A stretch of DNA of 64,000 nucleotides, from contig JAJDDD010000009.1 of NCBI GenBank assembly GCA_029260495.1, positions 622,266 to 686,265 on the forward strand, written 5' to 3'. This stretch comes from Phycisphaerales bacterium (GTDB lineage: Bacteria; Planctomycetota; Phycisphaerae; Phycisphaerales; UBA1924). Both the position numbers and the translations under genes were made by a program. A model generated the notes under the pieces. The model saw nothing but the letters and a program-made list of their open reading frames with translations. It was not told the origin of the DNA and ran no database searches. Positions 2,668 through 35,909 of the stretch are shown in pieces; positions within the stretch are counted from its first letter, which is position 1; every line of letters begins with the position of its first letter.

Positions 2668-5600
2668 ATGGATCATGACCCCACTTTTCCAGGCGATCCC
2701 GATGACCGGCCCACGATTGATCCCTCGTCTCATCGGACGACGCGATCGACTGAACCTGAGCAGCCGGGCGCAGAATCGCAGCCTCAGAGTGTTGGCCCTT
2801 ACAAGATTCTTGAAGTGCTCGGCGAGGGTGGGATGGGCGTGGTCTACCGGGCTGAGCAGGCGCAGCCTCGGCGCGAGGTGGCGCTGAAACTTATCAGGTC
2901 CGGGCTGGTCTCGGGGACGCTTCTTAAGCGATTTCAACTTGAAGCGGACATCCTGGCTCGCCTTCAGCATCCGGGGATTGCGCAGGTATATCAGACGGGT
3001 CTTCATGAGGGGACGCCTTACTTTGCGATGGAGTTAATCGAAGGTGAGTCGCTGACGAAGCACGCGCGCGCGAACGACCTTTCGGTGAAAGAGCGACTTG
3101 AACTCTTCGCGAAAATCTGCGACGCAGTCCAGCATGCGCATCAGAAGGGGGTTGTTCATCGCGATCTCAAACCCGGCAACATTCTGGTGGACGCGTCGGG
3201 TCAGCCCAAGATTCTTGACTTCGGCGTGGCCCGCGCCACCGACGGCGACATCCAAACGACGACTATTCAAACAGACATCGGGCAGCTTATCGGCACCATT
3301 CCGTATATGAGTCCGGAGCAGGCGTCGGGGAATCCTGATGACATCGATACTCGGAGCGATGTGTACGCGCTGGGTGTTATTTTGTATGAGCTGCTTTCGG
3401 GGCGGCTGCCGTACGACCTCTCGAAGAAGCTCGTTCACGAGGCCGTGCGCATCATTCAGGAAGACGACCCGACGCGACTCTCGTCAATTCACAAGACACT
3501 GCGAGGTGATGTCGAGACCATCGTCGGCAAGGCGCTTGAGAAAGAGAAAGAGCGACGATACCAGTCGGCCAGCGCCCTGTCGGCGGACATCAGCCGGTAT
3601 CTGCGCGATGAGCCGATCGCGGCGAGGCCGCCGAGCGCTTCGTACCAGCTTCGGAAGTTCGCCAAGCGCAATCGGGCGATTGTCACCGGTGTCGCAGCGG
3701 TTTTCGTGGTGCTTGTAGCGGGAATCGTGGGGACGAGCGTCTTTGCGGCTGGTCAATCGAGAGCGCGCGCCGAAGCGGTTGTTCAAAGCGACCTTGCGGA
3801 CCAGCGAGCCGACGAAGCGGAGGAAGCGCGCGATGAGGCTGACGCGGCGAGAAAGGAAGCGGACGCCGCTCGCGCTGCGGAAACCAAACGAGCCGAGGAG
3901 CTTCAAATCGTCGCCGACTTCCAGGCTGAGCGACTGGGTGAAATTGATCCAGACGGTATGGGCCTGTCGATGCGCAGGGGGCTGCGTGACAAACTCGTCG
4001 CTGTTGCCGACCGGCGGGGACTTGATGAAGAAAAGGCTACGGCGTTGCTCGATGAATACGAATTCCTCGTCTTGGGCGCTGACTTTACTGGCTTAGCGTT
4101 AGAGACGCTTGAAGAGCACATCTTCGAGCCAGCGCTTGAAACGATTGAAAACCAGTTCAAGGATCAACCTCTCATCGAGGCGCAGCTGCTTCAAACAATA
4201 GCGGAGACGATGACAAAAGCGGGCCTGCTTGAACAGGCGACGGCGCCACAAACCAGAGCACTTGAAACCCGGCGGCGTATTCTCGGCGATGAGCACTCCG
4301 ACACGTTGCTCTCGATCAACAACATGGGCTTCTTGCTAGAAAGTCAGGGTAAATACGACGAGGCTGAGCTGTACCACAAGGAAGCGATCACAGGCCGCCG
4401 TCGCATCCTTGGCGACGAGCATCCCGACACATTGACATCGATCAACAACATGGGATTCCTGCTAGAAAGTCAGGGTAAATACGACGAGGCTGAGTTGTAC
4501 TACAAGGAAGCGCTCGAAGGCTACCGCCGAGTCCTCGGCGACGATCATCCAGACACGTTGGGTTCGATCGGCAACATGGGCTACCTGCTGCAAAACCAAG
4601 GTAAGCTCGAAGAAGCCGAGCCATACTACATGGAAGCGCTCGATGGGCAACGCCATGTCCTCGGTGATGACCACCCTGATACGTTGGCTTCGATCAACAA
4701 CATGAGCAACCTGCTGCAAAGCCAGGGCAAGCTTGAAGAAGCGGAGCCGTACTGCAAGGAGGCGCTCGAGAGCTACCGCCGTGTTCTCGGCGACAATCAC
4801 CCCGACACACTGGCTTCGATCAACAATATGGGCTTCCTACTGCGAAGCCAGGGCAAGCTCGAAGAAGCGGAGTTGTACTATCGGGAAGCGCTCGAGAGCC
4901 GCCGCCGTGTCCTCGGCGATGGTCATCCCGATACGTTGCTCTCAATCAATAACATGGGTGTCCTACTATTGAATCAGAGCAGGTTCGTAGAAGCGAAATT
5001 ATATTTTAAAGAAGCGATCGAAACGCGTCGCCGCGTTCTCGGTGACAATCACCCCGATACATTGGCCTCGATCGACAATATGGGCTCTATGCTGCGAAGC
5101 CAAGGTAGGCTCGAAGAATCGCTGCTGTACTACAATGAATCGCTCGAGGGCAACCGCCGCGTCCTCGGCGATAATCATCCCCGCACGCTGATCTCTATCA
5201 ACAATATAGGCTCTCTACTAAAAAGCCAAGGCAAGCTCGAAGAAGCGCAATCTTACTATAGAGAAGCGCTTGAGGGCCGTCGCAGCGTTCTCGGCAACGA
5301 TCATACCCACACGCTGACCTCGATCAATAACATGGGCTCTCTGCTACAAAGCCAGGGTAAGCTCGAAGAAGCCGAGCCGTACTTTAAAGAGGCGATTGTA
5401 GGCCGTCGTCGTGTACTTGGCGATGACCACCGCAGGACACTGACTTCGATCAACAACATGGGCACACTGCTACAAAGCCAAGGCAAGCTCGAAGAAGCGC
5501 ACCTGTACTTTAAGGAAGCGCTCAACACCCGCCGCCGTATCCTCGGAGTTGGACATCCCGACACGTTGCACTCGATCAACAACATGGGCGCGCTGCTCAG

Positions 5601-33715: not shown

Positions 33716-33721
33716 AAAAAC

Positions 33722-35578
<1,857 letters not shown>

Positions 35579-35588
35579 ATTCAGCTGA

Positions 35589-35616
35589 GTTTTACATAAT
35601 ATGCATTATCGGCGTA
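35589..35616 (-). other. Candidate XerCD dif site
   Basis: On the minus strand the 28 bases divide into TACGCCGATAA, a 6-bp centre TGCATA and TTATGTAAAAC. Against E. coli dif I count 9 of 11 matches in the XerD arm, 5 of 6 in the centre and 6 of 11 in the XerC arm; the inner 21 bases match at 18. The XerD arm also fits the B. subtilis site. It lies in a 115-bp AT-richer gap 10 bp after the proS stop. A 12-bp palindrome, GCTGAATTCAGC, overlaps that stop (35574-35585). Confidence 0.55.
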
Positions 35617-35693: not shown

Positions 35694-35909
35694 TTACTCA
35701 CTCGTGCCTTGTTTACCGCTCTTCAGATTCAGACGCGCGAGGAGGCCTGACAAAAAGCCGAGCCCAAACACGATCACCAGAAGCAATGCTCGGGGCATGG
35801 AGATCGTCGCGAAGAGAAGTCGCGTGTCCACGCTCTCCATATTCTGGAAGATCAGCACGAGTACGAGGATCACGATGCCCGCGATAGTGGTGAGTTTGAA
35901 CTTGTTCAT
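35694..35909 (-). CDS. LapA-domain (DUF1049) small membrane protein
   Basis: A 71-residue protein with two hydrophobic helices, LTTIAGIVILVLVLIFQNME and MPRALLLVIVFGLGFLSGLL, separated by VDTRLLFATIS. This is the exact layout of the LapA/DUF1049 domain. In enterobacteria the LapA-LapB pair tunes LPS synthesis; the LapB partner is not nearby here. The cytoplasmic tail is short and basic. It stands alone between proS and the arsR operon. Confidence 0.82.
   Translation of the reverse strand: MNKFKLTTIAGIVILVLVLIFQNMESVDTRLLFATISMPRALLLVIVFGLGFLSGLLARLNLKSGKQGTSE

What the first reader, a model, noticed from the sequence alone, without database searches (positions are those of the whole stretch)
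35589..35616. Candidate dif site just after proS
A 28-bp 11-6-11 sequence matches the XerCD recombination site: 20 of 28 positions with E. coli dif and a near-identical core and XerD arm. It is intergenic and AT-richer than its surroundings. If real, the window lies at the replication terminus. dif sites in this lineage are little studied.
Basis: partly seen in the sequence, partly recalled or inferred. Interest (0 to 1): 0.52.

Follow-up and report, generated by a model that had tools for sequence, protein, structure and literature searches.

The report
Chromosome dimer-resolution site (dif), Phycisphaerales
A 28-letter DNA site just after the proS gene is very probably the spot where this uncultured planctomycete separates chromosomes that became joined during copying; it fills a gap left by an earlier survey, but the usual base-composition map of the replication end point does not work in this lineage.

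Summary
In detail: the 28-mer at 35589-35616 reads, on the minus strand, as an 11-6-11 site with 20 of 28 matches to E. coli dif. It is the only such site within 3 mismatches in the 3.2-Mb assembly. Its inner motif occurs in 124 of 301 genomes of the order, nearly always once; of 30 same-family genomes without it, 22 hold a variant. The outer XerC arm, which was not searched for, is conserved too. XerC, XerD and FtsK-gamma genes are present. In 5 of 6 measurable relatives dif lies 0.41-0.49 of the circle from dnaA. I conclude it is a genuine dif. A 2011 survey reported that dif prediction failed in Planctomycetes (passages read).

The terminus claim is only partly supported. GC skew cannot test it, because the window's 793-kb contig shows a sawtooth skew with 17 abrupt up-jumps against 6 down-jumps. 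KOPS-like polarity does not reverse at dif. The sawtooth is the more surprising observation and is unexplained.

The parts
35589..35616 (-). dif site, 28 bp, TACGCCGATAA-TGCATA-TTATGTAAAAC
35606..35616 (-). XerC-binding arm (inferred), TACGCCGATAA
   Evidence: 6/11 match to E. coli dif; outer positions conserved among relatives although not searched for
35600..35605 (-). central 6-bp core, TGCATA
   Evidence: 5/6 match to E. coli dif
35589..35599 (-). XerD-binding arm (inferred), TTATGTAAAAC
   Evidence: 9/11 match to E. coli dif; near-invariant in relatives, in part by construction of the search
33716..35578 (+). proS (prolyl-tRNA synthetase), neighbour; start codon not settled (frame translated from 33716)
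   Evidence: Pfam tRNA-synt_2b, tRNA_edit, HGTP_anticodon; next to dif in 11 of 20 relatives' 20-kb stretches
35694..35909 (-). LapA-domain small membrane protein, converges on proS
   Evidence: PF06305, 30.1 bits, cut-off 28

Best explanation
It is the chromosomal dif site of a Phycisphaerales bacterium (Planctomycetota). XerC binds the left arm and XerD the right arm. When an odd number of crossovers joins sister chromosomes into a dimer, two copies of the site are brought together at the division site and XerCD exchanges strands at the borders of the 6-bp core, giving two monomers. FtsK, whose gamma domain is present, probably pumps DNA and activates XerD. The site, its conservation and the presence of the genes are shown here; binding, recombination, FtsK dependence and the exact position at the replication terminus are inferred from the known E. 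coli system.
For: Unique within 3 mismatches in 3.197 Mb. Same inner 20 bp within 3 mismatches in 13 of 41 genomes (own included), once in each, with no hit of the reversed control pattern. ATAA-N6-TTATGTNAA exact in 124 of 301 order genomes, 118 of them single-copy by my count of the table; the reversed control hits 17 genomes. 22 of 30 same-family genomes that lacked the exact pattern hold a variant within 2 mismatches, against 1 control hit. Unsearched columns conserved: C at column 5 in 43 of 48 and column 6 in 39 of 48 distinct 28-mers. A matrix made from 47 relatives' sites, own excluded, scores the site 40.0 bits against 8.1 for the next best on the 793-kb contig, and 0 of 200,000 random draws reach its score at the unsearched columns. 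XerD-model hit over its cut-off (331.4 against 329.6) and XerC-model hit just under (333.1 against 335.15). One FtsK with a gamma domain, E=1.2e-23. dif-dnaA folded distance 0.490, 0.478, 0.475, 0.474, 0.414 of the circle in five relatives. dif sits downstream of proS in 10 of 20 relatives' 20-kb stretches, in 9 of them on the opposite strand as here.
Against: G300 (another family of the order) has dif only 0.065 of the circle from its best dnaA. No skew reversal at dif: the change in gene-strand-corrected skew at dif is reached by 135 of 654 circular shifts. GGGNAGGG counts are 53/29 left of dif and 11/6 right of it, so no polarity reversal within the 135 kb available. One genus (g24) shows no such site in 7 of 7 complete genomes even with 2 mismatches, and G016 also lacks it. 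177 of 301 order genomes lack the exact pattern; only 30 of these were re-searched.
Confidence: 0.95

Rival explanations
1. An attachment scar or a dif-like site of an integrative element or plasmid that uses the host XerCD, not the chromosomal dif.
For: Such elements carry dif-like sites (general knowledge; listed papers describe them in Acinetobacter).
Against: Single copy in the assembly; conserved next to proS in 11 of 20 relatives' stretches, including members of other genera; gap of only 115 bp with no integrase beside it.
Confidence: 0.02
2. Chance resemblance in an intergenic gap, or a transcription signal shared downstream of proS.
For: Base composition alone predicts about 0.5 sites with 20 or more matches to E. 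coli dif in 3.2 Mb; one weak promoter-like match overlaps it.
Against: Conserved in relatives where it lies 0.6 to 6 kb from proS or with no proS in the stretch, 9 of 20; conservation has the 11-6-11 pattern with a variable core; no terminator-like structure found in the region.
Confidence: 0.02

Closest known systems
E. coli dif / XerCD-FtsK chromosome dimer resolution
   Same: 28 bp, 11-6-11, TTATGT-type XerD arm and ATAA inner XerC arm; XerC, XerD and FtsK-gamma genes present
   Different: XerC arm reads NNGTCCKATAA in this order instead of GGTGCGCATAA; no clean skew or KOPS reversal seen at the site
dif sites predicted across bacteria by Kono et al. 2011 (PMC3025954; passages read)
   Same: Same kind of element, found by sequence conservation
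   Different: That survey states that prediction failed in Cyanobacteria and Planctomycetes; the sites here fill the gap for one planctomycete order

Membership tests
chromosomal dif (XerCD type) | 28-bp 11-6-11 site with partly palindromic inner arms | tested here: met
   ATAA-N6-TTAT inner repeat; 20/28 to E. coli dif
chromosomal dif (XerCD type) | one copy per chromosome | tested here: met
   one place within 3 mismatches in 22 contigs, 96.8% complete
chromosomal dif (XerCD type) | conserved among related genomes | tested here: met
   124 of 301 exact; 22 of 30 of the missing same-family genomes with a variant
chromosomal dif (XerCD type) | XerC and XerD encoded in the genome | tested here: met
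   XerD over the curated cut-off; XerC 2 bits under its cut-off but best match to that model
chromosomal dif (XerCD type) | FtsK with KOPS-reading gamma domain | tested here: met
   PF01580 and PF09397 in one open frame of 1082 codons
chromosomal dif (XerCD type) | located opposite the origin | tested here: inconclusive
   own genome fragmented (dnaA on C3, dif on C9); 5 of 6 relatives 0.41-0.49 of the circle from dnaA, one 0.065
[quoted passage not shown]
   sawtooth skew; corrected maximum 32 kb from dif but not significant at dif
chromosomal dif (XerCD type) | KOPS-type motifs converge on it | tested here: not met
   GGGNAGGG 53/29 left, 11/6 right; only E. coli-type and ad hoc motifs and 135 kb on the right tested, so the true KOPS of this lineage is unknown
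chromosomal dif (XerCD type) | XerCD-dependent recombination | not testable with these tools
   needs experiment

The most novel reading that the evidence does not exclude
The chromosome that carries this dif is not organised as two replichores. In this family strand-biased mutation starts in both directions from many dispersed points, about 17 on 793 kb, and fades over tens of kilobases, as if replication or another strand-exposing process began at many places; in the own contig these points are rich in GCGCAC. dif would then serve a bacterium with many origin-like sites.
Probability: 0.12. Interest if true: 0.92.

Novelty: new member of a known kind. Interest (0 to 1): 0.45.

Why it matters
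It gives a dif consensus for an order of Planctomycetota, a phylum for which a broad 2011 survey reported failure, and a landmark (downstream of proS in about half of the stretches checked) for orienting fragmented genomes. Because GC skew does not mark ori and ter in this family, dif is a rare usable terminus marker. The sawtooth skew met on the way could be tested directly with read-depth or Okazaki-fragment data and, if due to initiation, would contradict the one-origin rule for bacteria.

Tried and rejected
GC skew as a terminus test: raw, gene-strand-corrected and sampled in three relatives; no two-replichore pattern in any. KOPS-like octamers: no reversal; the top octamers of G172 come from one repeat array, probably CRISPR-like (my guess, not searched), and G084 gave nothing shared. 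Skew profile centred on dif in relatives: mean near zero, no common sign change, in 19 of 20 stretches (L185 dropped because its variant site failed the pattern). DnaA boxes at the sawtooth jumps: 9 against 6.3 expected, not enriched. GCGCAC at jumps: strong in the own contig (120 within 1 kb against a mean of 50 and a maximum of 90 in 1000 random sets), present in G172 (20 against 9.0), absent in G084 (5 against 4.4), so not claimed as a family-wide element. Many inversions as the cause of the sawtooth: not favoured because inversions give as many abrupt down-steps as up-steps, but not excluded in combination. Phylum-wide search: outside the order hits are near background except in family f32.

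Rows dropped: the sites of L011 and L185 (one genome, G014) fail the strict pattern and are not among the 48 28-mers; at least six of the 48 (L018, L019, L020, L031, L034, L041) look like chance hits by their outer arms and were kept. In one search the distances printed for L012 and L035 are not used because the proS match is cut by a contig or stretch end. In one search, four of ten genomes (G193, G045, G093, G039) have dif and the best dnaA on different contigs and give no distance.

Literature searches for dif in Planctomycetes or sawtooth skew in bacteria: (listings). Passages read: PMC3025954, PMC7111523, PMC8941118, PMC4613354, PMC11237797, PMC12288469, PMC10945688; first of two parts of PMC4403523. 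I found no report of a planctomycete dif in these, which is a statement about this open-access library only.

Full report
Where it is. The window is G000:C9:622266-686265 of a 3.197-Mb, 22-contig, 96.8% complete assembly. The BipA protein beside proS has its best named matches in Phycisphaerales and Phycisphaeraceae MAGs, and one genome of the same order, G048, has a contig of 5,710,378 bases, the length of CP050848.1 (Planctomycetales bacterium ZRK34).

The observation. The 28-mer is present and intergenic. On the minus strand it reads TACGCCGATAA-TGCATA-TTATGTAAAAC, 20 of 28 to E. coli dif, with arms and core 6/11, 5/6 and 9/11. It lies 10 bp past the proS stop, in a 115-bp gap between proS and a convergent LapA-domain gene. 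By composition 0.009 such matches are expected in the window but about 0.5 in the whole genome, so the resemblance to E. coli alone is suggestive, not decisive.

Conservation. The 28-mer is unique within 3 mismatches in its genome. Its inner 20 bp recur once each in 13 of 41 genomes, own included, with no control hits. The exact pattern ATAA-N6-TTATGTNAA is found in 124 of 301 genomes of the order; six of the 124 have more than one place, and the reversed control hits 17 genomes (counted by eye from the table). Among 30 genomes of the same family without that pattern, 22 hold a variant within two mismatches against one control hit; genus g50 mostly reads TTCTGT for TTATGT in the XerD arm, and genus g24 has none in 7 of 7. 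In 48 distinct 28-mers the bases that were not part of the search are conserved as well, giving NNGTCCKATAA-TRNNTR-TTATGTNAAAY. A weight matrix without the own site puts the own site at 40.0 bits, the next position on the 793-kb contig at 8.1; part of that gap is by construction, but its score at unsearched columns is reached by 0 of 200,000 random draws.

Machinery. Two Xer-type recombinases (on C13 and C6) score 333.1 bits to the XerC model (cut-off 335.15) and 331.4 to the XerD model (cut-off 329.6). A single FtsK carries motor and gamma domains. Its reading frame runs on past gamma into a long acidic tail.

Neighbourhood. In 20 stretches of 20 kb around dif in relatives, proS is present in 11; dif is downstream of its 3' end in 10 of the 11 (81 to 5875 bp) and on the opposite strand in 9 of the 11, as in the window. 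Some of these are congeneric (G084 with G193, G076 with G101). This is inherited gene order; it shows that the site is stable, not that proS has a part in it.

Position. The own dnaA is on C3, a second dnaA-like gene on C10, dif on C9, so the distance cannot be measured. In six relatives with dif and the best dnaA on one contig, the folded distance is 0.490, 0.478, 0.475, 0.474, 0.414 and 0.065 of that contig. Five of six at 0.41 or more has a probability of 1e-3 under uniform placement, ignoring relatedness. G300 contradicts; it is 79% complete.

Skew. The contig does not show two arms. Raw cumulative skew rises to 768,667; after removal of the gene-direction effect it peaks at 690,362, 32 kb past dif, but the contrast across dif is reached by 135 of 654 circular shifts. 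The reason became clear at finer scale: third-position skew in plus and minus genes agrees within 8-kb bins (r=0.66) and swings between about -0.5 and +0.6 many times. With 6-kb flanks there are 17 up-jumps and 6 down-jumps beyond 0.2, and the jump distribution has skewness 1.03, reached by 0 of 2000 phase-randomised series. At the up-jumps the third-position change is +0.56 in plus genes and +0.63 in minus genes, intergenic +0.26, and TA skew rises in 16 of 17. The jumps were chosen for size, so their mean height is biased upward; the up/down asymmetry is not. Sampled stretches of G084 and G172 show the same asymmetry (31 to 0 and 80 to 32 points beyond 0.25), G300 none. This resembles the sawtooth of dispersed origins (recalled from eukaryotic work), but mutation patterns do not show initiation; PMC4403523 (first part read) gives the standing caution that skew minima need not be origins.

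Mechanism. The most likely role is the known one: XerCD exchange at dif, activated by FtsK, resolves chromosome dimers. Shown: site, conservation, genes. Inferred: binding, catalysis, FtsK control, terminus position.

Novelty. A new member of a known kind, in a phylum where the survey of Kono et al. states that prediction failed (passages read). The consensus for the order and the proS landmark are, as far as the listed searches go, not in the open-access papers held here.

Noticed in passing
contig G000:C9 (792,910 bp); in the window the up-jumps are near 5585 and 43035: Sawtooth GC skew: 17 abrupt minus-to-plus jumps against 6 down-jumps, gradual decline between, same in plus and minus genes and strongest at third codon positions; also asymmetric in sampled stretches of G084 and G172, not in G300.
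   Followed up: partly
the 17 up-jumps of contig C9, within about 1.5 kb: GCGCAC-type words are enriched (120 within 1 kb against a mean of 50, maximum 90 in 1000 random sets); seen in G172, not in G084.
   Followed up: partly
family f32 of the same phylum: ATAATGTCCGTTATGTTAA recurs in 5 of 5 searched genomes of genus g201 and as a one-base variant in G548: a candidate dif for another planctomycete family.
   Followed up: no
genus g24 of the same family (7 genomes, 93-100% complete): No dif of this type even with two mismatches; a diverged site or another system is possible.
   Followed up: no
own genome C3 and C10; ten relatives: Two dnaA-type genes in each of the 10 relatives searched and in the own genome, the second below the DnaA cut-off.
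   Followed up: no
L049 (G000:C20, ftsK): FtsK gamma domain is not C-terminal: it is followed by a long, very acidic tail.
   Followed up: no
one or more sampled stretches of G172 (L214-L233): An oriented repeat containing GGCTTCTCAGCCGCGGCCCCATTGAAGC-like words about 65 times, probably a CRISPR array (guess; not searched).
   Followed up: no
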